Positions 1,042-41,117 of a stretch of DNA of 64,000 nucleotides are shown piece by piece (position 1 is the first letter of the stretch; every line of letters starts with the position of its first letter). The DNA lies in NCBI RefSeq assembly GCF_038051985.1, contig NZ_CP150291.1, positions 1,674,001 to 1,738,000 on the forward strand. The letters run 5' to 3'. Position numbers and translations under genes: made by a program. The notes beneath the pieces were generated by a model. It saw nothing but the letters and a program-made list of their open reading frames with translations. It was not told where the DNA came from and ran no database searches. Source of the DNA: Solibacillus sp. FSL H8-0523. GTDB taxonomy: Bacteria; Bacillota; Bacilli; Bacillales_A; Planococcaceae.

Positions 1042-1126
1042 TCCAATATATAACATTAATAATTAAAAAAGGTTTTTCATTGACCGCTTTTTCGATTTGG
1101 TTTGAATCCACAAGGAGATGTTAAAT

Positions 1127-2248
1127 ATGGAATTTATTAAAAAAGAGTTAATAGATACAATTAACTCTATGAATGATGAAAATATTCTTGAAATTAAACA
1201 AAGAATAAACAGGTTATTTGAATTTGCAGAATTATCAAAAAGTATATGGGGCACTGTTCCAAATTTTTTAGATTATAATGTTGACGTAATTGACGGTGCT
1301 TTAGCAGATGCGCAGGGCAGCAATGACGATCTAAAATTTGAAAACGCAGTAGCAGCGGAAGCGTTGCCGAAGGAAGAAGAGAGCGAAAATAACATATATA
1401 AACCAATGCCTCTCGAAAGAAGATTGAAAGGTGGAACATTAAGAAGAAATAATTCAACTTTATATGTGCCTGAAAAGATTATTCGCACAAATGGCTGGGT
1501 GCATGGTGATTATATAACAGCAATCGGTGAAAATGAACAGGAATTAATTTTTGAAAAGCATTCAGACAGCACCAGTGCGGATAAGAGTAATAGAGTTGAA
1601 TTGGATTATTGTTTAGTTACAAAAAGAGCAGATGAAAAATATGTAATTAAGCAGCATTATAATGAAGGAATATTAAAACCAACGCTATTAAATGGTGTGG
1701 AACATGAATTTGTCCTTGATATTAGTAATGTCTCTAATTTTAGGCTACAGGACGGTTATGTAGTGGCAATTGCTTTTTATGCTAATAAGCCTCATGAATT
1801 TAGGATAATTTGGCTTTACACTGACATGATGGAAATTCCTGCTCCACCGCCTCCAAAACCATCGAGCTATTACAAAGAACAGAACAGCGAGAAGAAATTG
1901 AAGTGGAATGACACAGAATTAAAAATATTAGAAGGAAAGAAAATTGTAATCGTTGGAGCTGATTTTCGTGCAAATGATTTTATTGGCCTAATGGATGAAG
2001 CGAAAATATCTTATAGAATATTAAGCGGTGATGAAAGTGATGCAAGATTTGAAGCCGCAGTTAGAGGAAAAGATTTGATCGTTTCATTAAGTTCACATAC
2101 CTCACACAGAAGTAGCGAATTAGCTAAATCATTAGCGAAAAAATACAGTATATCTTTCCGTGCTGCACCAACTAGCATATCATCTGTTAAAAGAGCAATT
2201 GTTCATGGTATAAGTGCGAAAGAGATACCTTTCCACTCTTTATTTTAA
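1127..2248 (+). CDS. DUF2325 domain protein, 373 aa
   Basis: The C-terminal part (about residues 266-360) has the Rossmann-like pattern of DUF2325: a 'KKIVIVGAD' strand and turn, then 'DLIVSLSSHTSH' and a basic 'SSVKRAI' helix. The N-terminal 90 residues are helical and acidic, a central domain looks beta-rich, and a proline run separates it from DUF2325. The start is placed at the second ATG (1127), ten bases after AAGGAG; the ATG at 1118 is too close to that site. A near-consensus promoter and a palindrome lie upstream. The molecular role of DUF2325 proteins is not established; occurrence in phages and plasmids fits a regulatory or nucleotide-binding role, which is an inference. Confidence 0.7.
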   Translation: MEFIKKELIDTINSMNDENILEIKQRINRLFEFAELSKSIWGTVPNFLDYNVDVIDGALADAQGSNDDLKFENAVAAEALPKEEESENNIYKPMPLERRLKGGTLRRNNSTLYVPEKIIRTNGWVHGDYITAIGENEQELIFEKHSDSTSADKSNRVELDYCLVTKRADEKYVIKQHYNEGILKPTLLNGVEHEFVLDISNVSNFRLQDGYVVAIAFYANKPHEFRIIWLYTDMMEIPAPPPPKPSSYYKEQNSEKKLKWNDTELKILEGKKIVIVGADFRANDFIGLMDEAKISYRILSGDESDARFEAAVRGKDLIVSLSSHTSHRSSELAKSLAKKYSISFRAAPTSISSVKRAIVHGISAKEIPFHSLF

Positions 2249-2262
2249 AGTGTGGTCACTTC

Positions 2263-2309
2263 CCCGAGTAAGCGGCATAAGGAAATATCACTTTACTATG
2301 TTACTCGGG
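2263..2309. repeat. Inverted repeat downstream of the DUF2325 gene
   Basis: CCCGAGTAA and TTACTCGGG pair perfectly over 9 bp across a 29-base loop. No T-run follows, so it is not a classical terminator. It sits between the DUF2325 gene and the RRNPP-type regulator gene and could be an operator or an RNA leader structure. Confidence 0.5.
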
Positions 2310-2501
2310 AGAGTGTACTAATATAATTATGCTTAAATTAACGGCCCATCTCAAAAGGTAGATCTAAAGGTTGTACAGTATTATCAAATAGTGGGCTTCC
2401 ACCAACAACAAGAATCAAAGAAAGACAAAATAAAATATTTAAACAAGTACGCTTCATTAATATCACTCCAATTAAATTATTTTAGTAAGGAAGTCGAAAT
2501 T

Positions 2502-3383
2502 ATGCATGATAACCAGCTAGGTTTTGAAATTGCCCGTATTAGAAAAGAATTAAAGATGACTCAAAAACAATTGAGTCAAGGAATATGCACACAACCTACA
2601 ATTAGCATGATTGAAAAGGGTGAGATACAGCCTGGAATCGAGATATTACTTGCAATATCCATTAAATTAAAAAAATCAATAACGCATTTTATTAACATCT
2701 TGTTAATGTCAAACTATACATATGTTCAAGTGCTAGTTGAGGAGCTAGAAGAGTTAACAACAAACCAAAGATACGATAAAGTCTATGCCATTGTAAGTGA
2801 AGAACTCTATAAAAAACCAGAAGACTATTGGTTTCAAACTTTTTTAAAGTGGAAGCATTACGGTAGCGCTTATTACTTAAAAAAAGCTACTTTAGATGAA
2901 ACACTTGAACAACTAATTTTACTTGTTCAATCAACAGACGATTTAATATTAAATAGAGATTTTTTGAAAGATCGTATTTATAATACAATTGCCTTTTTAT
3001 ATTCAACACGGAAAGATTATCATCTAGCGTTATTTTATTATAATAAAATTGATCTAAACAATATCATTTCAGAAGCCCCTCGACTGAATTACGATATTTA
3101 TCGTTTAAGAGTTATGTATAATAAAACAAAAACTTTATACGATATGGGCGACTATGAAAAATCCGTTGAATATTGCAAAACAGGAATAAAAAAATCTGTA
3201 GAGCTTGAAAACATGTCATTCATAGGCAACTTTCACTATTACTTAGGGCAATGCTACGAAAAAATGAAAATGGATAAAGAACAAATTAAAGGATGCTATA
3301 TAAATGCCCTCTTTTTCTTTCAACTATTAAATAGGGAACTGTACGTTGAAATTATAAAAAAGGAAAAGCAAATTTACCTTTAA
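2502..3383 (+). CDS. PlcR-type (RRNPP-like) XRE-TPR regulator
   Basis: This 293-residue protein has an N-terminal XRE helix-turn-helix (about residues 5-65, with 'MTQKQLSQGICTQPTISMIEKGE'-type spacing split over two helices) followed by a long helical region with TPR-like repeats ('FYSTRKDYHLALFYYNKI', 'YDMGDYEKSVEYCKTGIK', 'HYYLGQCYEK'). Length and layout match PlcR/NprR-like quorum-sensing receptors, which bind short peptides through the TPR part. It lies immediately ahead of the yopP-yopQ-yopR homologues, where SPbeta carries the arbitrium receptor AimR, so a role in the lysis-lysogeny decision is inferred. No AimP-like or PapR-like peptide gene was found within 250 bases downstream. The start at 2502 follows AAGG. 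Confidence 0.75.
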   Translation: MHDNQLGFEIARIRKELKMTQKQLSQGICTQPTISMIEKGEIQPGIEILLAISIKLKKSITHFINILLMSNYTYVQVLVEELEELTTNQRYDKVYAIVSEELYKKPEDYWFQTFLKWKHYGSAYYLKKATLDETLEQLILLVQSTDDLILNRDFLKDRIYNTIAFLYSTRKDYHLALFYYNKIDLNNIISEAPRLNYDIYRLRVMYNKTKTLYDMGDYEKSVEYCKTGIKKSVELENMSFIGNFHYYLGQCYEKMKMDKEQIKGCYINALFFFQLLNRELYVEIIKKEKQIYL

Positions 3384-3448
3384 CTTTTGAATTAGCGTTT
3401 ATCAATTCCTTACTGTCCTCATATTAAAACAAATTCAAACATAAATGT

Positions 3449-3474
3449 TAAAATATAAGTAAGCTTATATTTTA
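3449..3474. promoter_or_regulatory. Perfect 11-bp inverted repeat, candidate operator
   Basis: TAAAATATAAG, a TAAG spacer and CTTATATTTTA form a perfect dyad in the 308-base gap between the RRNPP-type regulator and the yopP-like gene. The geometry fits a dimeric HTH regulator site. PlcR-type regulators bind such palindromes. Confidence 0.5.
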
Positions 3475-3515
3475 TTGAAAATTTCGCATATTAGAAATTA
3501 ATACGATTTTTACCT

Positions 3516-3551
3516 TAGCTTATAGGCCATCTATAGGCTATTTTTGTTTTT
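3516..3551 (+). terminator. Probable terminator after the RRNPP-type regulator
   Basis: TAGCTTATA pairs with TATAGGCTA (one G-U pair) around a 7-base loop and is followed by TTTTTGTTTTT. It would leave about 130 transcribed, apparently non-coding bases after the regulator's stop codon. Confidence 0.65.
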
Positions 3552-3690
3552 GCTAAGACTAAATTTGCACAAATTTAAGATGAATATGAATACTTTTTTA
3601 TAAAAATGGTTACATTGTAAGTTATACAGCCGATATATTTTGCATATCCTGTTATATAGGTCAAATAAATTTATAAAGGAGCGTAAAGAA

Positions 3691-4692
3691 TTGAGGAGTG
3701 TCACTGGAAATAAACTGGAGAGAATTATAATGGATTTTATTGAGGAAAAATATTCATATTCGAAGGATACTGCGGTAAATTACCTATCTGACATAAAGCA
3801 ATTTTTGAAATATATGTTTGACAAAAACATCGATGAAGTTATAATTGATGAAATAGAACAGTTAAACTATAACAAATTAAACGGGTACTTAAAAGAACTA
3901 TCCAAAAATAAGGCAAATTCTACCATAAACCGCAAAGCTAGTGCGATTGAATCTCTATATAAATACCTAAAAAAAACTGGGAATATTGATATAGACATTA
4001 GTTTTTTTGGTTTAATTAAATCATTGCCTTCTACTCCAAATTCCTACGATGTTATGCCAATGGAAATCGTTGAGCAATATATTGAAGCAGCAAGCTATGA
4101 AAAGTATAAAACTATTGAAAAGAAATGGGCAATCATTTTAGCTACAGAATTAGGTTTGCGTCTTTCAGAAGTTCTTGAATTAAATTGGCAGCAATTTAAA
4201 GTAGACGGAAATCGTGTGTATGTAACAGGCTACGGCAAAGGAAATACTAAGTATGTAGAAGTCATTAGCAAGTTGCTATATGAAGATTTAATTGGTGAAT
4301 TAAAGCTAAATGGGCAAAAAAACTTATTTACATTATCTTCCAAAAACGTTAATGATATGATGATACGATTGAAAAAAAAATTAAAACAAGATGATCGCAA
4401 TTATACTTTCCATTCTTTTAAAAAAGCAGCGGTTACGAATACAAAAAGGGTAACAAACAATATTCTCGATGCCCAAAAAAAAGGGAAACATAAAAAGCTT
4501 GAAACTACTCAAATTTATCTCGAAGAAGTTGAAGCAAAAATGACGGGTTATTTTTCTTTATCAAGGGATTTAAATTTTAATTTACACAAAGAAGTTGAAC
4601 ATAACGTGTTGTTGGAAGCGCTTGAAAAAATGCCAAAAGATGTTTTGTTTTTATTAAATTTAGAATTAAACGAGAAGGAGAATGAGACATGA
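3691..4692 (+). CDS. yopP: YopP-like tyrosine recombinase family protein
   Basis: This is a tyrosine recombinase/phage-integrase fold protein of about 333 residues: a SAM-like core-binding domain (residues about 10-95) and a catalytic domain. Numbered from the TTG at 3691, I see Arg157 ('GLRLSE'), Lys183 ('GKGNTKY'), His241 in 'HSFKKA', His267 and the nucleophile Tyr276 ('TTQIYLE'). The second arginine of the usual H-x-x-R motif is lysine. In SPbeta the equivalent gene lies directly before yopQ and yopR in the lysogeny region. The TTG start follows AAAGGAG by nine bases; an ATG at 3730 is an alternative. The stop overlaps the next ATG by four bases. Confidence 0.8.
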   Translation: MRSVTGNKLERIIMDFIEEKYSYSKDTAVNYLSDIKQFLKYMFDKNIDEVIIDEIEQLNYNKLNGYLKELSKNKANSTINRKASAIESLYKYLKKTGNIDIDISFFGLIKSLPSTPNSYDVMPMEIVEQYIEAASYEKYKTIEKKWAIILATELGLRLSEVLELNWQQFKVDGNRVYVTGYGKGNTKYVEVISKLLYEDLIGELKLNGQKNLFTLSSKNVNDMMIRLKKKLKQDDRNYTFHSFKKAAVTNTKRVTNNILDAQKKGKHKKLETTQIYLEEVEAKMTGYFSLSRDLNFNLHKEVEHNVLLEALEKMPKDVLFLLNLELNEKENET

Positions 4693-6050
4693 ACGACAGC
4701 AGAGACGAACTACTAAAACTTATTAATGAAAACATGAATCAAATTGTTAACAAGAAAAAAACACTAGCAGAAGTAAAAGCTCACCTTCTACAAAACCGAA
4801 TAACGGAAGGTCGGGTAGAGGAAGTATTATCAAATCCCGAACTTATAGAAGATCAACGAGAATTAGCATTATTTACGGAACAGTTTTATGTGAAAACGGG
4901 CATCGAGAGTTTAAATCCTAATAAATGGTTTACTAATGCCCAAATGAAAGAAGCAAAACAGTATGATTTCATTATTGCGAATTCAGAAGAGTTAATTAAA
5001 TTTCCGTGGGAAATTACAGCGCTTCCAGGCCGTGACGGAGGTTACGTTAGTATAATTAGTAATCAAACGGTTGCAAAATTAATGAAATCACATAAATTAA
5101 ATTACAATCCAGACATCCAGCGCGAAGCAACGAGGGTTAAGCGAAATAATATTTTTGAATATACGCCTACAGTGGATAAAAAAAATGTCAGAGAAATTCG
5201 AGATTTAATATTAAAAGGTGAAATCGAACGTACTACGATAACGTTTAATGCTGCTCCTCGTACAGCCGACTGCGGAGAAGAGTTAATTTATGACCCGAAA
5301 ACATTCGTACTAACAATAACGGAAGGCACAAGACTAGATATTTTAGATGGATTCCATCGTTGTCTTGCCTGTCAAGAAGTGTATGAAGTTGATTCGGAAG
5401 TTGAAAGTTATTTTACATTAGATATAACTAATAAGACAACAAGACAGGCACAACGTTGGCAAGCGCAAACTGCAAAAGGTACTAGAATATCAAAAGCGCG
5501 TATATTAGAAATGGAAGATAAAAGTCGAGCAAATGGTGTTATTCAATTATTAAAATCGGAATCAGAGTTAAGAGGTCGGATTTCTTCACGTAAAGGTCGC
5601 GTAAACGCTGAAAGTGGGGAGTTAGTGAATTATCTTACTTTAAGCAATGCCATTGATCGCAATTTCAAACTGCAAAATAAATCAGATGAATACGAAGTGG
5701 CAGATTACTTAACTAAATTTTTCGAGTATCTAATGAGTTTATATCCACAGGAATTTGGGGATTATAAAAACAGAAATAAGCATTCGCTGATGTATTACAA
5801 TAAAATGTTTGCAGGCTATATTGCACTAGCTGCTAAAATGCATAAAGATAATATTGCATTTAAGGAATTAGCGGAAATAATGAATAAAATTGATTTTTCT
5901 CGAAATAATCCTATATGGATGAAGTTGGGTATAGTGGATGAAAACGGTGTTATTACAAAAAACGCAAAAGAAGAGAAAATAGAAAATTATTTCATAGGGC
6001 TTGTAGAGCAATCTAAAAATTACAATGAAAAGCGTGAAATGCTGAATTAA
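4689..6050 (+). CDS. yopQ: YopQ-like DGQHR-type protein
   Basis: This 453-residue protein matches SPbeta YopQ in length and position (between yopP- and yopR-like genes). It carries 'ILDGFHRCLACQE' around residues 218-230, a DGxHR motif like that of DGQHR/DndB/ParB-related domains, preceded by 'NPDIQREATRV' and 'FNAAPRTADCG'. These features suggest an enzyme-like or DNA-linked fold. SPbeta YopQ takes part in the control of lysogeny, but its biochemical activity is not established. The gene overlaps yopP by four bases (ATGA), so the two are probably translationally coupled. The C-terminal half is helical and charged. Confidence 0.75.
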   Translation: MNDSRDELLKLINENMNQIVNKKKTLAEVKAHLLQNRITEGRVEEVLSNPELIEDQRELALFTEQFYVKTGIESLNPNKWFTNAQMKEAKQYDFIIANSEELIKFPWEITALPGRDGGYVSIISNQTVAKLMKSHKLNYNPDIQREATRVKRNNIFEYTPTVDKKNVREIRDLILKGEIERTTITFNAAPRTADCGEELIYDPKTFVLTITEGTRLDILDGFHRCLACQEVYEVDSEVESYFTLDITNKTTRQAQRWQAQTAKGTRISKARILEMEDKSRANGVIQLLKSESELRGRISSRKGRVNAESGELVNYLTLSNAIDRNFKLQNKSDEYEVADYLTKFFEYLMSLYPQEFGDYKNRNKHSLMYYNKMFAGYIALAAKMHKDNIAFKELAEIMNKIDFSRNNPIWMKLGIVDENGVITKNAKEEKIENYFIGLVEQSKNYNEKREMLN

Positions 6051-6071
6051 AATTAAAAGGAGGTGTAGATA

Positions 6072-7097
6072 GTGAGCGAAGAAAAATTCTATAACGCAAA
6101 AGTAAAAGAAGAATACTTAGCGACAATCGCATATCCTGCAACTAGGCAAATGGCAAATTACGTATTTAAAAAAGCAAAAAAAACTGAATTAGCCTATCAA
6201 AAAGACATTTATGAAATGAATATTGAGGAATTAAAAGATGTAATTAAAGGTCTTGAAGCATCAACGATTGATAGTGCATATAATTACTTTTTTAAATTAG
6301 AATATTATATTGATTGGGCTACAAAATACCGTACAACAACAATTAATGAATTAGCAGCAATTACTGATAAGCGCGAGTGGGTATCAAAATGTGTTGCATC
6401 ATTTAGACAACCAGTTTATAAACGTGAACAAATTTTAGATATGTGTAAGGAATTAGATAACTATCCAGATCGTGCGGTGCTATTGGCGCTGTTTGAGGGC
6501 ATTGGGGGCGAAGGTTATTCAGAGCTACTAAATCTACGCTCAAAAGATTTAACTGAAAAAGATGGTCGCTATTACGCAACACTTTATGATAAGCATGGAA
6601 ATTCACGTACACTTGAAATTTCCGAAAAATTGGATGAATATTTAAGAAAAACAGATGATGAAACAGTATATCGCAATAAAAATGGCAAGTCAGAAAGCAT
6701 ACGTTCATCTGAAAGTCTTTTAGTACCATCACCATTTATCTTTAAAAAAGCCGCAAGAGGCAAGCAAGAGGGTGCGCTAGATTTATTTTTTGTGCAGCGG
6801 AAGTTCACAATGTTTAAAGAGTTGTTTGAAACGAGCTTCATAACACCTAAAAGAATTATTAACAGTGGCATGTTACATCATGTTAATGAGATTCATCAAA
6901 AGCAAGGGTTTATGACGTATGACGATTGGATTACAATTGCAGAAATTTTTAATACGTCCATTATTAAATATAACGGCGAAGACACAAGAAATATTTTAAC
7001 ATTAAAGAAAAAAGCTTCAGAAAAGAAATTCAAAGAAGTATATGGATATAAAGTTGTGGAGAAAGAAATAGAAAAAGTGCAGAGCCAACGAATTTAA
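6072..7097 (+). CDS. yopR: YopR/MrpR-like master repressor of the prophage
   Basis: This 341-residue protein is the third member of the yopP-yopQ-yopR array. SPbeta YopR (MrpR) is the repressor that holds the prophage dormant; it has a tyrosine-recombinase fold without recombinase activity and binds a repeated operator. Here too the fold is suggested by 'LLALFEGIGGEGYSELLNLRSKDL' (in two parts: core helix and strand), while the first catalytic arginine position is not Arg and no nucleophilic tyrosine motif is visible. GTG start at 6072 after GGAGGTG. A terminator overlaps its stop. It is expected to bind the repeated AT-rich elements listed below; this is an inference. Confidence 0.8.
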   Translation: MSEEKFYNAKVKEEYLATIAYPATRQMANYVFKKAKKTELAYQKDIYEMNIEELKDVIKGLEASTIDSAYNYFFKLEYYIDWATKYRTTTINELAAITDKREWVSKCVASFRQPVYKREQILDMCKELDNYPDRAVLLALFEGIGGEGYSELLNLRSKDLTEKDGRYYATLYDKHGNSRTLEISEKLDEYLRKTDDETVYRNKNGKSESIRSSESLLVPSPFIFKKAARGKQEGALDLFFVQRKFTMFKELFETSFITPKRIINSGMLHHVNEIHQKQGFMTYDDWITIAEIFNTSIIKYNGEDTRNILTLKKKASEKKFKEVYGYKVVEKEIEKVQSQRI

Positions 7098-8087: not shown

Positions 8088-8588
8088 ATTAGATTTGTAG
8101 GAATTGATATTTCAACAAACACTGGACTTTGCATTTTAGATGAAAGCGGCATTGCAATTGAGTCAGTGAAAATATCGGCAAAAAATCTGGACGATCCCCA
8201 GCGAATGATGGAGATGACAGCTCGTATTATAAGCTATTTAGATTCTGCAACCGATAAAGTGTTAGTAGAAGGATTCGCATATGGAGCTAGAGGGAGAGGC
8301 GTGGGCTTTCAATATGGAGCAGGCTGGATTGTCCGTGAAGCGTTGGTATTAAACTCTATACCCTATCTTGATGTCCCACCATCGGTTGTTAAGAAATTTG
8401 CTACCAATAACGGACAAGCAAAGAAAGAAGCTATGATTTTACCGATTTTTAAAAAATGGAAATTTGAGCATGAGAGTGACGATGTGAGAGATGCATATGT
8501 GCTTGCTAGAATTGGCTACTCTATGTATTTTCAAGATAATTTACTTGAGTATGAAAAAGAAGTTTTGAAAAAAATTAAAAAAATTTAG
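8088..8588 (+). CDS. RuvC-like Holliday-junction nuclease, probable AUU start
   Basis: The product (166 aa) has the RNase-H-like RuvC fold: 'RFVGIDISTNTG' at the N-terminus (first catalytic Asp), 'KVLVEGF' near residue 65 (Glu), and 'SDDVRDAYVLARIG' near residue 140 (Asp pair). Length matches RuvC-like resolvases (about 170). The first Asp motif lies upstream of the first ATG/GTG/TTG in frame (GTG at 8166), so translation must begin earlier. ATT at 8088, six bases after AGGAG, is the only sensible start. The role inferred is resolution of replication or recombination intermediates next to the SSB and Sak4-like genes. Confidence 0.75.
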   Translation: MRFVGIDISTNTGLCILDESGIAIESVKISAKNLDDPQRMMEMTARIISYLDSATDKVLVEGFAYGARGRGVGFQYGAGWIVREALVLNSIPYLDVPPSVVKKFATNNGQAKKEAMILPIFKKWKFEHESDDVRDAYVLARIGYSMYFQDNLLEYEKEVLKKIKKI

Positions 8589-8697
8589 AATGTAGTGTTT
8601 AAGAAATCGAATTTCGAGAAGATAATAGAGTGTGTGGGGGAGATTTTGAGACACACATGAGTAAAGTTTTACAATATGAATTAAAGGGGAGCATTAT

Positions 8698-9642
8698 ATG
8701 TCTGAAAAAAAAGTTCTAAAAGAGGGCGCAAACAAAGTAACAGTTGTAGGAACGTTAGTTGAAAAGAATTTGAAAATTGATACGTTCAAAAATACAGATG
8801 GTGAAACTATCGAATTTATTAATGGTACAATTAGCATTCGCACAGGTGATAATGAGGTGCATCAAATTCGCTTGCGCTCAAATAAATACACTAAAGAGGG
8901 TAAAGAAAATAACTTATTCAAGGCCTATGTAACGGTTCAAGAAGAGTACGTTTCAGTAGCCGATGTTGCAGAAGCAGCTAAAAAAGGTTTTAATCTAGTT
9001 GCTAGTGAGGTGTCCGTTGACGGTAAGCTTGTAACAAACGAATACTATGCTCAAGACGGAAGACTTCGACAATACCAACAAATTGATGGAAGATTTGTTA
9101 ATCGACTACGTGAAGTTGATGATCCAACACCTCGGGCAGTGTTTGAAGTTGATATTTTTGTATCGAAAGCACGTCAAGAAATTTTAGATGACGAGGAAAC
9201 AGGTCGCGCAATTGTAGAGGCATTTATTCCTACGTACAGCAGCATTGTTCCCTATAACTTTGCCGTGATTGAAGAGGGAGCGGATTTCTTCTTATACAAC
9301 TTAGAACATGGTCAAACATTAAAAGTGTACGGCAATATCTTAAATGTTAAAAAAGAGCAGCGTAAAATGGTTGAAATGGCATTTGGTGAGCCGCGAGAGG
9401 AACTGGTTATTACTTACCGCTCGGAATCATTAATCAACAACGCTAAAAGCGCATATGAAGAGGATTCACCATATGCTTTCAATCTTGAGCTAATTAAAGA
9501 GCGCTTAGTAAAGCGTCAGGCGTATCTGGAACAGCAAAAAGCGCGACAAAACGGGGAGAACGCTTCAACTAATAATAATTCTACTGGTTTTCCAACTAAT
9601 AAATCCTCGGATGAAGTGCGAGACGTAAGAAAGTTGTTTTAA
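8698..9642 (+). CDS. Phage single-stranded DNA-binding-like protein (YorF position)
   Basis: This 314-residue protein begins with an OB-fold-like stretch ('NKVTVVGTLVEKNLKIDTF', then 'IEFINGTISIRTG') and ends with a low-complexity Asn/Ser linker and a short charged tail 'VRDVRKLF'. The layout resembles phage SSB proteins with a flexible linker and protein-binding tail. It lies directly before a Sak4-like ATPase, a frequent SSB neighbour, and occupies the place of yorF in the SPbeta replication block. ATG at 8698 after AAAGGGG. SSB function is inferred from fold pattern and context; no catalytic motif is expected. Confidence 0.6.
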   Translation: MSEKKVLKEGANKVTVVGTLVEKNLKIDTFKNTDGETIEFINGTISIRTGDNEVHQIRLRSNKYTKEGKENNLFKAYVTVQEEYVSVADVAEAAKKGFNLVASEVSVDGKLVTNEYYAQDGRLRQYQQIDGRFVNRLREVDDPTPRAVFEVDIFVSKARQEILDDEETGRAIVEAFIPTYSSIVPYNFAVIEEGADFFLYNLEHGQTLKVYGNILNVKKEQRKMVEMAFGEPREELVITYRSESLINNAKSAYEEDSPYAFNLELIKERLVKRQAYLEQQKARQNGENASTNNNSTGFPTNKSSDEVRDVRKLF

Positions 9643-9646
9643 TTTC

Positions 9647-9670
9647 TAACATAAATAAATTTTTATAATA
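9647..9670 (+). promoter_or_regulatory. SPBRE-like repeated element, copy 2
   Basis: TAACATAAATAAATT followed by TTTATAATA, five bases after the SSB-like stop codon and 50 bases ahead of the Sak4-like gene. Confidence 0.65.
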
Positions 9671-9719
9671 ATTACGTTTTAGCATTCCTAGATTAATAAT
9701 GAATGGAGACTGATAGTGA

Positions 9720-10709
9720 ATGACTAGTTTTGATATTTTCAATCCCCAGATTTCAACAGTTGCAAAAGGATTAGAGGGGAAAGTAATTACAATTGTTGGC
9801 TCTAACAATTTAGGGAAAACGAAACAAGCTACTCGAATGGAGCGCCCGTATTATATTGGATTTGAAAAAGGTTTACGCGCAATCGCTGGCATTCCTTTTT
9901 TACCTGTTAATAAGTGGACGGATTTCAAAAAAATCAATAAGCAGCTAACTGATCCAAAAACGCTATCAAAAGCGAGAGAGCTTTATCAGACTATTATTTT
10001 TGATGAAGTATACACAAGTGCGCTTTACTGCCAAGATTATTTGTGTAAAAAATTTGGTGTTGAAACAATTGGTGACGGTAACGAAGGTTACGGACTCTGG
10101 AAAGAATATGAAACGGAGTATTGGACGGAAATCGATAAATTACTCAATAGCGGCTACACATTGATTTTTATCAGCCATGAAGAAACGACTAAAGAAGGGA
10201 AGAAAATCCCTAAAGGCGATAAACGTTCAATTAAACCAATTATTGATAATTCAGACGTTGTTGTGTATTTACAATCAAATGGTATTGACGAAAACAATAA
10301 AGTTATTAAATCATCGGCATGGTTCGCGGAAACGCCAGAATTTTTTGCTCGTTCTCGTTTCGATTATATGACAACATTTATCCCAGAATTTACGGCAGAA
10401 AATTTAGAAGCAGCTATTGCAGAAGGCATTCGCTTGCAAGAGGAAGCAGAAGGAATTGTAGCAGTAAGTTACAATGAGCAAAAAGAATCCTATCAATCAG
10501 AAGCGTTAGATTTTGACGCAATCTTTTCAGAAATCAATGAAATTGGAAATCGTTTGGCATCATCGGGTTATTTAGATGAGCTGTTGGAAAGTGTTGAAAG
10601 ACATTTAGGCAAAGGAAAAAAAGTTGGCGATGTTAAGCCATCTCAAGTTGATTTGCTTTCATTATTATTAATTGAAGTTAAGGAATTAGCGGAAGAATTA
10701 AACGTTTAA
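9720..10709 (+). CDS. Sak4-like RecA-fold ATPase (YorG position)
   Basis: This is a P-loop ATPase of 329 residues. Walker A is 'GSNNLGKT' at 27-34, Walker B is 'TIIFDEV' with Asp95-Glu96, and a later 'LIFISHEE' strand fits the sensor position. The layout is that of Sak4/AAA_24 phage proteins, RecA-core single-strand annealing recombinases that work with SSB. A C-terminal helical tail of about 100 residues is acidic. The SSB-like gene precedes it and the helicase and primase genes follow, which supports a role in recombination-dependent replication. The ATG start has a GGAG site 11 bases upstream, slightly long. Confidence 0.7.
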   Translation: MTSFDIFNPQISTVAKGLEGKVITIVGSNNLGKTKQATRMERPYYIGFEKGLRAIAGIPFLPVNKWTDFKKINKQLTDPKTLSKARELYQTIIFDEVYTSALYCQDYLCKKFGVETIGDGNEGYGLWKEYETEYWTEIDKLLNSGYTLIFISHEETTKEGKKIPKGDKRSIKPIIDNSDVVVYLQSNGIDENNKVIKSSAWFAETPEFFARSRFDYMTTFIPEFTAENLEAAIAEGIRLQEEAEGIVAVSYNEQKESYQSEALDFDAIFSEINEIGNRLASSGYLDELLESVERHLGKGKKVGDVKPSQVDLLSLLLIEVKELAEELNV

Positions 10710-10730
10710 CATAAATAAAAATTTAAAATA
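10707..10730 (+). promoter_or_regulatory. SPBRE-like repeated element, copy 3
   Basis: TAACATAAATAAAAATTTAA overlaps the stop codon of the Sak4-like gene by three bases. It is a slightly diverged copy. Confidence 0.55.
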
Positions 10731-10789
10731 TACAAAAATAATGCGTAGTGTCTATTAGATACTGCGCAATTATTTTAGGGGTGATTATT

Positions 10790-11275
10790 ATTTCTACGCC
10801 TACACAATTAAAATGCGCCTGGTGCGTTAAAGCAATTAAAAAAGATACGCTTTATGTAAAGCACAGCTCCAAAAAGTATTTTCACAACATGTGCTATGAA
10901 AAATATAAAATCAATGAAGCGGATCGAAAGGAATTGCTTGAATATATCATTGAATTACAGGGACATCGAAAATTAGATCCAAAAATATTTTCTCAAATAA
11001 AAGATTGGCAAGATAAATATAATTTTCAATATAAAGCCATTGAATTAACATTACGCTATTTTCACGAAATTAAAGGAAATTCATATGATGAAAAGGGTAT
11101 TGGTATTGTTCCATATGTCTATGCAGAAGCAGAAAAATTTTTTGGCCGATTATTTGAAATAACTCAACAGATTAAAGAAACTGATTACAATCCTCAACAT
11201 GAGACAGTCTATATTAATGATCCTCCAAAAAAAGTGAATAAAAAGCTAGTAAACATAGAGGAGATTACAGAATGA
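10790..11275 (+). CDS. Small zinc-finger protein (YorH position), probable AUU start
   Basis: The product (161 aa) opens with a treble-clef-like metal site: Cys-x2-Cys ('CAWC') about residues 9-12 and His-x3-Cys ('FHNMC') about 20 residues later. The rest is helical and basic. It overlaps the helicase gene by four bases (ATGA), so the two are translationally coupled, and its place matches SPbeta yorH, suggesting a helicase-loading or primosome role (inference). Start: a strong AGGGGTGAT site precedes three ATT codons; the ATT at 10790 (or 10787) has the correct spacing, while GTG codons at 10748 and 10781 lack a usable site. Confidence 0.6.
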   Translation: MSTPTQLKCAWCVKAIKKDTLYVKHSSKKYFHNMCYEKYKINEADRKELLEYIIELQGHRKLDPKIFSQIKDWQDKYNFQYKAIELTLRYFHEIKGNSYDEKGIGIVPYVYAEAEKFFGRLFEITQQIKETDYNPQHETVYINDPPKKVNKKLVNIEEITE

Positions 11276-12867
11276 CTAAACTTCAAGACAAACTAGCGAT
11301 TACCCAGGTTTTAGCAGGATTAATGAAGCATCCAGAACGCACTTCAAGTAAAGCATATGACTTGTCTACAGATGATTTTGTCGAGAAAATGCATCAGATT
11401 ATTTTTGGCGCAATTACAAACTTATATACAAATGAAGCTAAGAAAATAACCATACTAGAAATAGATGCATATTTGCAAAACTACACAGAACAATATCGAA
11501 TTTTTAACGAGAATGATGGAATCGAATATTTAGAAGCAATACAAGAGTTTTCTGTAATAGACAATTTCGACATGCATTATCAGCGAGTAAAGAAGTTTAC
11601 ATTTTTGCGAGAATGTAAAAAAATCGGTATTGATATTTCAGATATTTACAATGAAAAACTGGTCGATTTAGCAGAAGAGGAAGAAAGAAACAAGCGCTTT
11701 GATAAAATGACGCTAACGGACATGGTAAAGCATGTAGAATTAAAAATCATTCTTATTAAAGAGCAATTTCTATCGAGTAATACATTTAGCGGTGGACATA
11801 TATCTGAAAACGTTCAAGAAATTATTGATGCAAAAGAAGCATCACCAAGTTTCGGAGCACCGCAAGCCTCCTTATTTTTAAATACAATCTTTCGTGGCTC
11901 ACGTAAAAGAAAATTCAACCTCAAACACGGTAACACTGGTGGAGGGAAGTCTCGTTTTGGAATGGCGAATATGGCAGCTAAAACTATTCCCGAAATTTGG
12001 GATAATAAAGAAAACAAATGGATCAAAACAGGTGCTAATAAACATGGTCTAATTATTTCAACCGAATTAGATGAAGAAGAAATTAAGCTTCCTTTTGTAG
12101 CCTACATTGCGAACGTTGATGAATCACTTATACATGAGAAAAAATTAACACATGAAGAAAAAGTGCGAGTTGAAAAGGCTGTAACTATTTTAGAAAAATC
12201 AAGCTTATGGTTTGAGGTGTTAAGTGATTTTGACATAGAGGATATAGAAACGACCATTATTAAACATATAAATTTACATGACGTAGAGTTTATTGAATTT
12301 GATTATATCCACACGTCTCTAAAATTACTCTCCGCGTTAGCTCAAAAAGGAGCTAGAAACCTACGTGAAGACCAAATTCTTTTAATTATTGCTATTAGTT
12401 TAAAAGACTTATGCAACAAATATGACATTCACATTGAAAGCGCTACTCAGTTAAATGACAACCAAAACAAAGACGACAACATGGATCAAAGCTGGATTCG
12501 AGGCTCAAAAGCATTAGCAGATAAAATAGATGGAGGATATATTCTACTGGAAATTCGGCCTAAAGACCAAAAATTAATTGATGCAGTTTATAAGTCGGGT
12601 AAGATGGTTAAATTTGCAGTTGAACCGAACATTAGCTTAAACGTATATAAATCAAGGGGCGGTAAATGGAAGCGTATTCGAGTGTTTGGGCATTTTAATA
12701 CAGGCACTTTGCGATTTCAAGACTTGTTTTGTATAAATTATAACGGTGAATTAATATCAGAGATTGAGCTTAAAACCATTTCATTCAATGAACCGAGCGG
12801 AACAGAAATTAGTAAATTGCTATATGATAATGATGAAGACGAGCTGCCAGAATTTGCAGAAGATTAA
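11272..12867 (+). CDS. yorI: DnaB-like replicative helicase (YorI)
   Basis: A RecA-fold helicase of 531 residues. An N-terminal helical domain (1-130) precedes Walker A 'GNTGGGKSR' near residues 220-228, a Walker-B-like strand 'EFIEFDYIHTSLK' in the 340s, and 'IESATQLND' resembling the DnaB H3/Q-motif region. The length equals that of SPbeta YorI, annotated as a replicative helicase, and the neighbours (primase and polymerase genes) agree. It should unwind the phage replication fork as a hexamer. It overlaps the preceding zinc-finger gene by four bases. Confidence 0.85.
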   Translation: MTKLQDKLAITQVLAGLMKHPERTSSKAYDLSTDDFVEKMHQIIFGAITNLYTNEAKKITILEIDAYLQNYTEQYRIFNENDGIEYLEAIQEFSVIDNFDMHYQRVKKFTFLRECKKIGIDISDIYNEKLVDLAEEEERNKRFDKMTLTDMVKHVELKIILIKEQFLSSNTFSGGHISENVQEIIDAKEASPSFGAPQASLFLNTIFRGSRKRKFNLKHGNTGGGKSRFGMANMAAKTIPEIWDNKENKWIKTGANKHGLIISTELDEEEIKLPFVAYIANVDESLIHEKKLTHEEKVRVEKAVTILEKSSLWFEVLSDFDIEDIETTIIKHINLHDVEFIEFDYIHTSLKLLSALAQKGARNLREDQILLIIAISLKDLCNKYDIHIESATQLNDNQNKDDNMDQSWIRGSKALADKIDGGYILLEIRPKDQKLIDAVYKSGKMVKFAVEPNISLNVYKSRGGKWKRIRVFGHFNTGTLRFQDLFCINYNGELISEIELKTISFNEPSGTEISKLLYDNDEDELPEFAED

Positions 12868-12892
12868 AATCCAATAGAAAAGAGGTAACACA

Positions 12893-14011
12893 TTGAGCCA
12901 CGATATTATCGAGCTAAAAGAAAGCCTAACAATTGATGATATTATGCTGTTACTGACTGAATTAGGCGCTGAAAACGTTCACTACAACGAGAGACGAAAC
13001 GAAATTATTACGAATACGATTTGCCATAATAAAAGCGGTGGCAGCCATAAGCTTTATTACATGCAGCGTACTAACATGTTTCGCTGTTTTACGGAATGTT
13101 CATGTAAATTTGACATTTATGATTTGATTATAAAAGTTTACAAAACGCATGATACTGAAGTTAGCTTCAGAGATGCAGTAGAGTACGTTAAATATAAAAC
13201 TCGCAAAACAGATAGGCTATTTGATAGCAGTTTCTTATTACCCAATGAAGTTAAAAAAAATGAAGAACTCGCTTACTTCAAACGATTTAAGAGAAATAAG
13301 AAAGTTGAGTTTTCAGAGCCGCAGACGCATGATGATAAAATTTTAGAAGTTTTTAGTTCACGCCATCATGAAACCTTTTATAATGATGGAATTTCTCATG
13401 AAGTGTTAAATGCTTTTGATATTAAATTTTATGATAAAGAGAATGCAGTCATTATTCCTCACCGCTATTATAAAAACGGAAAAATTATTGGTATTAAAAT
13501 GAGGAACTTAGACGAATGGAAAATTGAAAGTGGCTACAAATATATTCCTGTTCGTGTGCAAGGTACGCTTTATAATCATGCAAGTTATTCAAATTTGTAT
13601 GGTTTATGGGAAAATAAATTAGCGATCAATCGATTAAAAAAAATTGCTATATTTGAATCAGAAAAATCAGTTATGCAAATGGCTACGATGTTTGGTTTAG
13701 AAAATAATTATGCGATAGCATTAAGCGGAAAAAACATTAACCAGTATCAAATTTCAATTTTAATGCAGCTAGATATTGAAGAAGTAATTTTGTGCTTAGA
13801 CAAAGAATATCGAGATGTAGATGATTTACAGGCATTCATTTTTAAAAAAAAACTAGTAGAACTCGGAAGGCGCTTCAGTAATTTTGTACGTGTTTATACA
13901 ATATGGGATAAAGATGGATTATTGGACTACAAGGATAGCCCTACTGATAAAGATGCCGTAGTTTTTGAACAATTACTGCAAACGAAAGAACAAATATGGT
14001 GTAAATTTTAA
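12893..14011 (+). CDS. yorJ: DnaG-like TOPRIM primase (YorJ)
   Basis: A 372-residue protein with a cysteine/histidine-rich N-terminus (Cys44, His45, His52, Cys65, Cys69, Cys71), resembling a degenerate CHC2 zinc domain, then a TOPRIM-like domain: 'IAIFESEKSVMQM' (Glu near 255) and 'EVILCLDKEYRDVDD' (acidic pair near 303). These are the hallmarks of bacterial/phage primases. Position after the helicase and size match SPbeta YorJ. TTG start at 12893, following AAGAGGT. It should synthesise RNA primers for the phage polymerase. Confidence 0.8.
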   Translation: MSHDIIELKESLTIDDIMLLLTELGAENVHYNERRNEIITNTICHNKSGGSHKLYYMQRTNMFRCFTECSCKFDIYDLIIKVYKTHDTEVSFRDAVEYVKYKTRKTDRLFDSSFLLPNEVKKNEELAYFKRFKRNKKVEFSEPQTHDDKILEVFSSRHHETFYNDGISHEVLNAFDIKFYDKENAVIIPHRYYKNGKIIGIKMRNLDEWKIESGYKYIPVRVQGTLYNHASYSNLYGLWENKLAINRLKKIAIFESEKSVMQMATMFGLENNYAIALSGKNINQYQISILMQLDIEEVILCLDKEYRDVDDLQAFIFKKKLVELGRRFSNFVRVYTIWDKDGLLDYKDSPTDKDAVVFEQLLQTKEQIWCKF

Positions 14012-14033
14012 CAAAAGTAAATTTATAAAATAA
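14009..14033 (+). promoter_or_regulatory. SPBRE-like repeated element, copy 4
   Basis: TAACAAAAGTAAATT then TATAAAATAA, overlapping the primase stop codon and lying 25 bases ahead of the RecJ-like gene. Confidence 0.5.
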
Positions 14034-14057
14034 CTATGAACGATTAAAAGAGGTGAT

Positions 14058-38933: not shown

Positions 38934-38957
38934 ACTGCCTTAAATGGCGGTTTTTTT
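38934..38957 (+). terminator. Terminator ahead of the recombinase gene
   Basis: ACTGCC pairs with GGCGGT (one G-U) around TTAAAT-type loop bases and is followed by seven T residues. Confidence 0.8.
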
Positions 38958-38979
38958 ATTAATGGAAAGAGAGGATTTT

Positions 38980-40587
38980 ATGAAAAAGAAAAGAGTTTGG
39001 TGTCTATATCGTGTATCTATTAAGAAACAAGTGAGTTCTGATGATGATATACCAATGCAAAGAAATGCTTGTATGAACTTTGTTAATACAAAAACAGATT
39101 GGGAAATAACAAATGAGTTATATGAAAAAGGTGTATCAGGTTGGAAGAAAAAGGCGAAAGACCGAGATGAAATGAATATAATTAGGGAAGGAGCAATAAA
39201 TAAAGAATTTGATGTTCTACTCGTTTTTATGAATGACCGTTTAGGCAGACGAGAAGATGAAACACCTTTTGTAGTTCAATTTTTAATTGAGCAAGGAGTA
39301 GAAGTATGGTCGGTTCAAGAAGGACAAATTAAAATTGAACATCATATTGATAAATTATTGAATTTCATTACTTTTTGGCAGTCATCTGGAGAGAGTGATA
39401 AAACATCAGTACGTTCAAGAGAAGCAAAAAAACAACTCAGTGAACAGGGGTATTATCAAGGCGGGAAAGCGCCATATGGTTACAAGCTTATAGAGACAGA
39501 TAGACCGCATTGGAAACATAAAGATAGAATGGAAAAGGAATTAGTTGTAAATAAAGACGAAGCAGAAGTGATAAAACTACTGTTTAGTCTTTATGTAGAT
39601 AAACACATGGGTTTCCGTAAAATTCTTAATTATTTAAATGAAAACGGGTATCGAACTAGGGAAGGTAGATTCTTTGGAATAACAACGATTCAAAGAATTA
39701 TAAAGAATACAATATATATTGGAAAAAAAGTATATATTGGATTCAGTGGTAAGAAGGGTGATACACAACCATACAATGAAAAATTAAGAATAATTTCTGA
39801 CGATCAATTTCATATGGCACAAAAAGTACTTGCTAAAAGAAAAAGTAAAATACATGAGCAGGACAGAACAGGAATCCCCCTGTCTGGAAGACTGAAATTT
39901 TCTGGATTAGCTTTTTGTGAGTATTGTGGTGGGAAATTACAAGCCAATTATTTTTATAGAACACAAAAAAATAAAAATACAGGAACTATTTATGAAAATT
40001 ATATTACTTACCGCTATCAGTGTTTGATAAATAATGGTAAATCAAAAGATAATCATCAACAAGTTATATTTGGTTCAACTAAATATGATGAAATTGCTAT
40101 TGAAGAAATAAAAAGAACATTTTCCCAATTAGACATAGACTTGTATATTGAAACTTCTGTTAAGCAAAGAAAAAAACAAATAGCACAAAAAGAAAAAAAC
40201 ATAAAAATTTTAAGTAGGGAAACTGAACAATATAAAAAACAATTGATAGTATTGAACAATGAAATTTCAATCGCCTTGCTAGGGGAAAGTAAATTTTCGC
40301 CCGATCAACTTTCATCTGCAATCGCCTCAACAGAAGAACAGATAAGAACAACAATTGAAAATATGAATTCTTTATTAGAGGAGATTAGGATCGAAAAGGA
40401 AAATTCTTTTAGTGCTGATTATGTGGCAAAAGAATTGAAAGATTGGGAAAATAAATTTGACAATGCAGACAATGATCTAAAAAAAGCTATGCTTTCAAGA
40501 GTAGTAAATAAGGTGTATTTTGGTAAAAATAAAGTGGAAATAGAATACAATCTTATATTAGAGGAATGTTTGAAAGAAATGAAATAA
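38980..40587 (+). CDS. sprA: SprA-like large serine recombinase (integrase)
   Basis: A large serine recombinase of 535 residues. The resolvase domain opens with 'VWCLYRVSIKKQ' (catalytic Ser13; Arg11), followed by 'NDRLGRREDE'. The recombinase domain ('GGKAPYGYKLI', 'HMGFRKILNYLN') spans about 170-290, a zinc ribbon follows ('LAFCEYCGGKL' with a later Cys), then a long coiled coil (about 365-475). Size and position at the prophage edge match SPbeta SprA. It should integrate the phage and, with a recombination directionality factor not seen here, excise it. ATG at 38980 after GAGAGG. Confidence 0.92.
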   Translation: MKKKRVWCLYRVSIKKQVSSDDDIPMQRNACMNFVNTKTDWEITNELYEKGVSGWKKKAKDRDEMNIIREGAINKEFDVLLVFMNDRLGRREDETPFVVQFLIEQGVEVWSVQEGQIKIEHHIDKLLNFITFWQSSGESDKTSVRSREAKKQLSEQGYYQGGKAPYGYKLIETDRPHWKHKDRMEKELVVNKDEAEVIKLLFSLYVDKHMGFRKILNYLNENGYRTREGRFFGITTIQRIIKNTIYIGKKVYIGFSGKKGDTQPYNEKLRIISDDQFHMAQKVLAKRKSKIHEQDRTGIPLSGRLKFSGLAFCEYCGGKLQANYFYRTQKNKNTGTIYENYITYRYQCLINNGKSKDNHQQVIFGSTKYDEIAIEEIKRTFSQLDIDLYIETSVKQRKKQIAQKEKNIKILSRETEQYKKQLIVLNNEISIALLGESKFSPDQLSSAIASTEEQIRTTIENMNSLLEEIRIEKENSFSADYVAKELKDWENKFDNADNDLKKAMLSRVVNKVYFGKNKVEIEYNLILEECLKEMK

Positions 40588-40641
40588 AATATCGTGAGAT
40601 AATAAAATTTAGTTTTTTTTTTGCTTAATAGTAGTGCATTT
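40588..40641. other. Right attachment-site region (attR)
   Basis: Host exporter sequence becomes readable in frame right after a TAG at 40632-40634 and the codons TGC ATT TTG TAC CCG. The recombinase gene ends at 40587. The crossover must therefore lie near 40,588-40,641, most likely close to 40,635. The core cannot be read without the left end. A T-run at 40,612-40,621 may end sprA transcription. Confidence 0.65.
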
Positions 40642-41117
40642 TGTACCCGTTCACCAATGCTGACGCAACAATTGCAGAAGTACGTGAGGCTGCGAATTTG
40701 GCATACATTGATAAAGATATTTTGGAGTTCTCTGAAGGCTATAAAACGGTTGTCGGTGAGCGCGGTGTATCTTTATCCGGTGGGCAAAAGCAGCGTATTT
40801 CAATTGCGCGTGCCCTACTAATGAAACCGGAGCTACTCATTTTAGATGACTCATTATCGGCGGTGGATGCACGTACCGAAGAGGCAATTTTACACGCCCT
40901 AAAAGAAGAGCGTAAGGATGCGACAACAATCATCACATCGCACCGTTTAAGCGCGATTCAACAGGCGCACCAAATCATCGTGATTGATAACGGGACGATC
41001 ATCGAAAAGGGAACGCATGATGAATTAATGGCTAAAAAAGGCAGCTATTACGAAATGTATCAACTACAACAGCTTGAGCAGCTAGTGGAAAAAGGTGGTG
41101 ACGCGCATGAAAAATGA
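40635..41117 (+). pseudogene. BmrC/YheI-like ABC exporter half, 3' remnant cut by the prophage
   Basis: Only about 160 C-terminal residues of an ABC exporter remain: the end of the helical subdomain, the signature 'VSLSGGQKQRISIARALL', Walker B 'LLILDDSLSAVDARTEE' and the switch-His region 'TIITSHRLSAI'. The transmembrane domain and Walker A are missing to the left. Walker B is followed by Asp instead of the catalytic Glu, marking the degenerate ATPase site of a heterodimeric exporter such as BmrC of BmrCD (YheI/YheH). It overlaps the partner gene by 11 bases. With the prophage in place it cannot make a working exporter. Confidence 0.9.

What the first reader, a model, noticed from the sequence alone, without database searches (positions are those of the whole stretch)
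2502..7097. RRNPP-type regulator in the arbitrium position of an SPbeta-like lysogeny module
In SPbeta the AimR receptor precedes the region with yopP, yopQ and yopR. Here a PlcR-like XRE-TPR protein (293 residues) occupies that place, followed by clear YopP-, YopQ- and YopR-like genes. No AimP-like gene is seen within 250 bases downstream. The phage may use a different peptide signal, or respond to a host peptide.
Basis: partly seen in the sequence, partly recalled or inferred. Interest (0 to 1): 0.75.

Follow-up and report, generated by a model that had tools for sequence, protein, structure and literature searches.

The report
PlcR–PapR-type signalling pair in SPbeta-like prophage
A large SPbeta-like prophage carries, where its Bacillus relatives keep the arbitrium receptor, a bacterial PlcR-type peptide receptor together with an overlooked PapR-like signal-peptide gene, which suggests that phages have recruited peptide communication more than once.

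Summary
A PlcR-type receptor (2502-3383, 293 aa) sits directly upstream of YopP-, YopQ- and MrpR/YopR-like genes in an SPbeta-like prophage of about 129 kb. A candidate lies upstream on the other strand (2457-2338): a 39-aa secreted-type ORF with a Shine-Dalgarno, starting 45 bases from the receptor start and ending ...QPLDLPFEMGR, the PapR core (PapR7 = ADLPFEF). Many relatives of the receptor on chromosomes and plasmids have the same kind of peptide, often divergent. A palindrome, ATATAAG-N4-CTTATAT, occurs exactly once in the 4.14-Mb genome, 70 bases past the receptor and before YopP; it recurs beside some related receptors, including two of four plasmid loci fetched after the motif was fixed. 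No AimR-model match exists in the genome. Best reading: a PlcR-PapR-type quorum-sensing cassette, from another branch of the family than AimR, captured at the lysogeny module. Pair and operator are supported by sequence only; control of lysogeny and promoter direction are inferred. [quoted passage not shown]

The parts
2338..2457 (-). PapR-like propeptide gene, 39 aa, MKRTCLNILFCLSLILVVGGSPLFDNTVQPLDLPFEMGR; ATG at 2457 with GGAG Shine-Dalgarno
   Evidence: only LDLP[FY]E coding pattern in the host genome
2502..3383 (+). PlcR-type receptor: XRE HTH plus TPR (RNPP_C), 293 aa; ATG at 2502
3453..3470 (.). operator-like palindrome ATATAAG-TAAG-CTTATAT
   Evidence: exact match unique in 4.14 Mb; same motif beside some related receptors
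3421..3426 (-). candidate leftward -10 (TAATAT), 26 bases from the palindrome, same spacing as before peptide genes in L092 and L094; inferred
3516..3540 (+). terminator-like hairpin followed by a T run, between the palindrome and YopP
   Evidence: 2 found in 2200-3800; shuffles mean 0.5
3691..4692 (+). YopP-like tyrosine recombinase (my choice of start: TTG at 3691 preceded by AAAGGAG; ORF open from 3640)
4689..6050 (+). YopQ-like DndB-family protein (phrog_5732)
6072..7097 (+). MrpR/YopR-like master repressor
38944..40587 (+). large integrase (phrog_95, also matches a DNA-invertase family, so read as a serine recombinase), right end of the prophage
40641..41117 (+). C-terminal piece of the host ABC-transporter gene split by the prophage (N-terminal piece at L123:9944-11341); identified by eye

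Best explanation
The region holds a complete PlcR-PapR-type quorum-sensing cassette taken up by an SPbeta-like prophage and placed at the lysogeny module, where B. subtilis phages carry AimR-AimP. The 39-aa propeptide is secreted, trimmed to a short peptide around LDLPFEM, re-imported, and binds the TPR groove of the receptor. The bound receptor binds the palindrome at 3453-3470. By analogy with PlcR (an activator switched on by its peptide) this turns on a promoter there. Targets are the peptide gene itself, by a leftward transcript (feedback), and/or the adjacent YopP-YopQ-MrpR unit, so that a high density of lysogens favours keeping the repressor on. Supported by sequence: receptor identity, peptide gene and its conservation, the unique palindrome and its recurrence beside related receptors, and the arbitrium-like position. 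Inferred: secretion, processing, binding, direction of the promoter, and any effect on lysogeny.
For: Receptor is PlcR-like by Pfam, PDB sequence and fold. The asparagines equivalent to PlcR N159 and N201 are invariant in the window receptor and nine relatives (N161 and N207); passages of PMC3601957 report a strictly conserved peptide-binding Asn in the RNPP family. Peptide. PapR-like peptides lie beside 20 of 32 related receptors, 15 divergent (one of them beside a truncated receptor) and 5 convergent downstream, and beside all four plasmid receptors opened, three divergent and one convergent (the Macrococcus one...GLPYEI, was seen by eye because the scan asks for D or E before LP; its Shine-Dalgarno is). 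Palindrome. Position. No AimR-model match in the genome and one RNPP_C protein.
Against: No expression or binding data. The palindrome was first seen post hoc in the window and two relatives. By count it is not enriched genome-wide over the reversed pattern in relatives: 27 sites against 35 in eight genomes; 6 against 2 in this genome; mainly its location is informative. Five of the nine genomes have no site with at most one mismatch near their receptor. A terminator-like hairpin lies between palindrome and YopP, and the spacing of -10-like sequences fits a leftward promoter better than a rightward one, so direct control of YopP-YopQ-MrpR is open. None of 54 other loci has this receptor, so no conservation supports a lysogeny role. 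In SPbeta the MrpR operator lies in the aimR and yopM promoters (PMC10516654 passages); the repeated element found here has no site above 4.3 bits starting in 2200-3750, the nearest good copy (18.8 bits, 3787) being inside the YopP gene. Twelve of 32 receptor relatives showed no peptide under the scan's rules.
Confidence: 0.55

Rival explanations
1. The pair is a genuine PlcR-PapR-type system but a passenger (moron): it regulates itself or host genes and has no part in the lysis-lysogeny decision; its place before YopP is chance.
For: Related cassettes sit on chromosomes and plasmids beside a lantibiotic cluster, an F420-hydrogenase-like operon or a secreted-type protein gene. A published structure-based tree links five-TPR receptors mostly to biosynthetic clusters (PMC12700828 section 7). 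No other module carrier examined has the receptor. A hairpin separates the palindrome from YopP.
Against: The only exact palindrome in the genome lies between receptor and the repressor operon; no other candidate target was found, though the five one-mismatch sites were not examined. Receptor position equals that of AimR in Goe14.
Confidence: 0.25
2. The receptor mainly eavesdrops on related chromosomal or plasmid systems of the host family, whose peptides share the DLP[FY] core, so the prophage senses bacteria rather than fellow lysogens.
For: Peptides of neighbours share the core: PLDLPYEFDM in a same-genus genome, PLDLPYEI, TLDLPYEA, SDLPYEV.
Against: The prophage encodes its own peptide 45 bases away, and the host genome has no second such pattern and no second RNPP_C protein. 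Flanking residues differ between pairs.
Confidence: 0.12
3. The module is decayed: the peptide ORF or the receptor is no longer functional.
For: Several related loci are decayed: interrupted in G005, with stops in G007, G077 and G057.
Against: Here receptor, peptide ORF with Shine-Dalgarno, MrpR, portal, terminase-like, tail and integrase genes are open frames.
Confidence: 0.06
4. It is a divergent AimR-AimP (true arbitrium) system.
For: Position upstream of YopP-YopQ-MrpR.
Against: No match to the AimR model NF038310 anywhere in the genome, while the same search rang in 4 of 14 control genomes and over the cut-off in 1. Receptor of 293 aa against 386 aa for AimR of Goe14; best fold PlcR.
Confidence: 0.02

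Closest known systems
PlcR-PapR of the Bacillus cereus group
   Same: HTH plus TPR receptor of 293 aa; secreted-type propeptide ending in a DLPFE core; palindromic box with the same 7-4-7 layout and outer TAT (PlcR box wTATGnAwwwwTnCATAw, PMC2464732 passages)
   Different: 28-31% identical to PlcR over the fold alignments; propeptide divergent upstream instead of directly downstream; different inner bases of the palindrome and no PlcR box near the module; prophage lysogeny locus instead of a virulence regulon
AimR-AimP-AimX arbitrium of SPbeta and phi3T
   Same: peptide receptor just upstream of the YopP-YopQ-MrpR genes of SPbeta-like phages
   Different: different receptor branch (five-TPR clan with PlcR against nine-TPR clan with AimR, PMC12700828 section 7), no AimR-model match, peptide upstream on the other strand with a PapR-like end; AimP inactivates AimR (PMC10516654 passages) whereas PapR activates PlcR (abstract listing)
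PlcR-type cassettes on Lysinibacillus, Exiguobacterium and Macrococcus plasmids (L161-L163)
   Same: 46-48% receptor identity, divergent PapR-like peptide; palindrome with one mismatch just after the receptor in L161 and L163
   Different: plasmid context, other downstream genes; in L162 only two-mismatch sites, farther away
Rap-Phr second system of phage phi3T
   Same: bacterial-type RRNPP system on an SPbeta-like phage (mentioned in PMC13389391 passages)
   Different: no DNA-binding domain in Rap (recalled; also PMC3601957 passages); not in AimR's stead

Membership tests
PlcR-PapR type RRNPP system | receptor with HTH and PlcR-like TPR domain | tested here: met
PlcR-PapR type RRNPP system | adjacent small secreted-type propeptide with C-terminal [DE]LP[FY]E | tested here: met
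   signal peptide judged by a crude hydropathy test only, not SignalP
PlcR-PapR type RRNPP system | propeptide directly downstream and co-directional (usual layout) | tested here: not met
   divergent upstream; same in many relatives. PMC9765709 says Bacillales systems encode it immediately downstream, though its figure legend allows upstream or downstream for the superfamily (passages)
PlcR-PapR type RRNPP system | palindromic operator | tested here: inconclusive
   palindrome found; it is not the PlcR box, whose consensus has 3 one-mismatch sites in the window against 5.1 expected, none near the module; binding untested
PlcR-PapR type RRNPP system | peptide binds receptor and switches on transcription | not testable with these tools
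   needs bench work
AimR-AimP arbitrium | AimR-family receptor | tested here: not met
AimR-AimP arbitrium | AimP-type peptide gene downstream | tested here: not met
AimR-AimP arbitrium | controls lysis-lysogeny | not testable with these tools
   position only
SPbeta-like phage | YopP-YopQ-MrpR module, SPbeta-type size, large serine-type recombinase, late genes on the opposite strand | tested here: met

The most novel reading that the evidence does not exclude
An arbitrium analogue that arose separately from AimR: an SPbeta-like phage replaced or filled the AimR slot with a five-TPR PlcR-type receptor, a divergent PapR-like peptide and a private operator placed between receptor and repressor operon. 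Peptide binding activates rather than inactivates the receptor, so the phage reaches the same decision (many lysogens, stay lysogenic) with the opposite molecular sign. The leftward promoter at the operator would make the peptide message antisense to the receptor gene, coupling positive feedback on the signal to damping of the receptor.
Probability: 0.33. Interest if true: 0.87.

Novelty: new variant of a known kind. Interest (0 to 1): 0.72.

Why it matters
Phage peptide communication that controls lysogeny in SPbeta-like phages is known through AimR. A PlcR-type pair at the same locus would show that the slot upstream of the repressor operon is a place where different peptide-sensing systems can plug in, give a second receptor type with a known structural relative (PlcR-PapR7-DNA) and a short predicted signal, and make the question directly testable with synthetic peptides. 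It also shows that peptides of PlcR-type systems should be searched for on the opposite strand upstream, where small ORFs of 26-52 aa are easily missed.

Tried and rejected
Canonical AimR elsewhere in the genome: none by NF038310. PlcR box of B. cereus: a first scan used a recalled pattern that was one base too long (37 sites with up to 2 mismatches); with the published consensus there are 3 one-mismatch sites in the window against 5.1 expected, none near the module; at two mismatches, 2707 and 3585 appear in 2200-3750. Relatives of the receptor in IMG/VR: three scans (single sequence, ten-member and five-member alignments) found none; the seeds were few short peptides, so distant ones may be missed. 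INPHARED phages gave only a 61-residue HTH match; the peptide gave only a chance hit. MrpR-operator-like control of the receptor: a strong repeated element was found in the prophage but not near the receptor (its matrix was trained on the copies it then scores). Attachment core by exact words: nothing convincing; the split ABC gene was used instead. Tree: the receptor groups with the relatives L002, L005, L028, L029, L030 (95/98), but branches are long and the inner order is open.

Relatives not examined: of the 16 other MrpR-bearing genomes, 15 were opened (G083 not); of 28 plasmid records matching the receptor, 4 were opened; the tally covers 32 of the 51 match places (the window's own is one of the other 19). 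L008 and L009 have co-directional downstream secreted-type peptides without the LP[FY] core and were counted as lacking it; L100 (G017) has a TELPYE-type ORF about 3.4 kb from its receptor, outside the flanks tallied, so L049 was counted as lacking it. L052's receptor is a truncated remnant, so its spacing to the peptide is not a true start-to-start distance. In the IMG/VR set some slots are cut by contig ends (L142 holds 1,987 and L152 431 bases before the YopQ match), and many of the 33 are near-identical B. subtilis-type phages.
Full report
What is there. The window is bases 1,674,001-1,738,000 of a single-contig 4.14-Mb genome. The prophage splits an ABC-transporter gene, whose pieces (recognised by eye) lie at L123:9944-11341 and window 40641-41117. 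About 129 kb lie between (129,290 bases taken for analysis). It has portal, terminase-like and tail genes on the minus strand to the left, replication genes, ribonucleotide reductase and a large serine-type integrase at the right end. MrpR matches among phages are 39 records, the 25 listed including phi3T, SPbetaL and Goe11-14 phages, Geobacillus E3 and Psychrobacillus Perkons, so it is an SPbeta-like prophage without obvious decay.

The receptor. The 293-aa frame 2502-3383 has HTH_3 and RNPP_C domains. Its only full-length match among solved structures is PlcR, and an AlphaFold model from two sequences (pLDDT 82.9) best matches PlcR with PapR7 and DNA (3u3w, E 1.5e-13, TM 0.75 by query length, rmsd 4.8, 31% identity). 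N161 and N207 align with PlcR N159 and N201 (numbering counted from the alignments) and are invariant in the ten aligned receptors, the window's included. That N159 and N201 touch PapR is recalled; that RNPP receptors share a strictly conserved peptide-binding Asn was seen in passages of PMC3601957. It is the only RNPP_C match of the genome at E 0.001, and no AimR-model match exists in it (the same search rang in 4 of 14 control genomes, over the cut-off in 1).

The peptide gene that was missed. On the minus strand at 2457-2338 lies a 39-aa ORF with GGAG eight bases before ATG. It begins MKRT, continues with a long hydrophobic stretch, and ends NTVQPLDLPFEMGR. PapR7 is ADLPFEF (start of the abstract of PMC6568020 in a listing; passages on the conserved PFEF core). 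A scan for Shine-Dalgarno, signal-peptide-like start and [DE]LP plus a bulky residue near the end finds only this ORF in the 64-kb window, none in 332,590 bases of 21 control loci and none in 30 Markov copies of the window. The coding pattern for LDLP[FY]E occurs once in the whole genome, here; the reversed pattern, used as control, also occurs once, so the count is at chance level and the place is what matters.

The peptide is conserved with the receptor. In a search of 261 genomes of the family, 47 had a receptor relative at E 1e-10. Of 32 loci tallied, 20 have a PapR-like peptide: 15 divergent (one beside a truncated receptor) and 5 convergent downstream (L047 and L048 carry the same peptide, so 19 distinct cases). 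In 13 of the 14 genomes of genus g14 that have the receptor, the divergent peptide starts 50-55 bases from the start of the receptor match, with the two Shine-Dalgarnos back to back; in the window the two start codons are 45 apart. Of four plasmid loci opened from 28 matching records, the three with 46-48% identical receptors have divergent peptides ending LDLPYEA, SDLPYEV and GLPYEI, the last seen by eye because the scan requires D or E before LP (its Shine-Dalgarno is); the fourth has a convergent one. Twelve of the 32 loci show none under these rules, among them three of the closer relatives (L031, L032, L005).

The operator-like palindrome. Comparing DNA upstream of the peptide genes, I saw ATATAAG-N4-CTTATAT in L028, a close variant in L030, and then in the window (3453-3470). 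With the pattern then fixed, L052 has it with one mismatch and L029 with two. In the host genome the exact sequence occurs once; five more sites have one mismatch. In G229 and G054 the only site with at most one mismatch in the whole genome is the one beside the receptor; G057 has one of six there; G159, G059, G077, G015 and G005 have none there at that stringency. By number the motif is not commoner than its reversed control in these eight genomes (27 against 35 sites; 6 against 2 in the host), so the argument rests on position. Two of the four plasmid loci, fetched afterwards (50,053 bases), have it with one mismatch 35 and 138 bases after the receptor stop, where the rate (33 sites in about 38 Mb) predicts about 0.04 sites in all. 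The published PlcR box itself (TATGnAnnnnTnCATA) is not near the module, but has the same 7-4-7 layout when written wTATGnAwwwwTnCATAw (PMC2464732 passages).

Which way does it point? In L092 and L094 a good -10 (TACAAT, TATAAT) lies exactly 26 bases from the palindrome towards the peptide gene. At the same spacing the window has TAATAT and L093 TAAAAT, both leftward; rightward in the window there is ATTAAT. L163 has TATAAT 25 bases leftward. In L104 and L161 TACAAT lies 27 bases to the right, towards a downstream operon. The site therefore seems to serve either direction in the family. In the window a leftward promoter is slightly favoured; it would run antisense through the receptor into the peptide gene. 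A terminator-like hairpin at 3516-3540 stands between the palindrome and YopP. Direct control of YopP-YopQ-MrpR is possible but not shown.

The slot. In Goe14 aimR-aimP stands before the YopP-YopQ-MrpR genes. Perkons, Geobacillus E3, Staphylococcus SPbeta-like and Mammaliicoccus phi127 have other, mostly small genes there, no annotated receptor and no AimR match. Of 33 IMG/VR loci fetched with a YopQ profile, 18 have an AimR relative on that side. In those 33, 15 MrpR-bearing genome loci and 6 named phages (54 loci; Sundance among them lacks annotated YopQ and MrpR genes there; a few IMG/VR slots are cut by contig ends, and many are near-identical), no PlcR-type receptor was found among called ORFs; the one profile hit was a 129-aa ORF in L080, too short for a receptor. 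Three other genomes (G149, G068, G083) carry both a receptor relative and MrpR, but far apart or on different contigs. So the window is a single case so far.

Known or new. [quoted passage not shown] A 2023 survey reports Rap and PlcR clusters together on ten plasmids and phage-encoded systems of other clusters (PMC10075063, passages plus sections 7 and 11; its supplementary tables and the figure columns on orientation and viral elements were not seen, so a PlcR-cluster prophage entry or a divergent one there cannot be excluded). A 2025 structure-based tree puts PlcR in a five-TPR clan and AimR in a nine-TPR clan (PMC12700828, section 7). Searches of the open paper library for PlcR or PapR or AimR with prophage, arbitrium, divergent, Lysinibacillus or Planococcaceae listed no title or abstract opening that describes such a module; subscription journals are mostly not held. 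Brady et al. [quoted passage not shown]

Conclusion. The receptor-peptide pair is very likely a real PlcR-PapR-type signalling pair (my estimate 0.88), the palindrome is likely its operator (0.75), and control of the lysogeny module is about even (0.5). It works like arbitrium if that last step holds; it is not a member of the AimR family.

Noticed in passing
prophage, genome about 1,585,300-1,714,590; window copies at 9649, 15783, 25577 (exact): A directional repeated element ACATAARTAAATTTTTA: 8 exact, 14 one-mismatch and 22 two-mismatch copies, best scores up to 29.8 bits (matrix trained on these copies) against 10.6 in 80 kb of neighbouring host DNA. It may be the MrpR operator (SPBRE-like) or a phage promoter element.
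   Followed up: partly
L111 (G005) 9396-14662: The same-genus relative of the receptor is interrupted by transposase-like genes (by eye); its PapR-like peptide sits before two lantibiotic-like precursors and LanB- and LanC-like genes.
   Followed up: partly
L094 (G054) 8101-13203: The palindrome lies between the divergent peptide gene and an operon with F420-hydrogenase-beta-like, EPSP-synthase-like and creatininase-like proteins, a possible biosynthetic cluster under PlcR-type control (the last two names are by eye).
   Followed up: no
L033-L046 (genus g14), about 100-250 bases after the receptor stop: A conserved stretch with GAGTACAAAATACTTA-like and ATGCATAAATGGATATTT-like sequence follows the receptor in these genomes and appears inverted in L043, the only one of them without the peptide.
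   Followed up: no
L008 (G013) 2379-2540 and L009 (G009) 2376-2534: More distant receptors have co-directional downstream secreted-type peptides with VVPFG or VPLG near the end instead of LP[FY]E.
   Followed up: no
window 1118-2248: A 376-aa protein with a sub-threshold DUF2325 match lies left of the peptide gene; no PHROG family matched at E 0.1.
   Followed up: no
L161 (Lysinibacillus fusiformis plasmid pG5.M11b_1) 5844-8438 and L104 (G057): A closely similar cassette of divergent peptide, receptor (a remnant in G057), palindrome, a secreted-type protein of about 235-253 aa and a 94-aa membrane-type protein occurs on a plasmid and a chromosome.
   Followed up: partly
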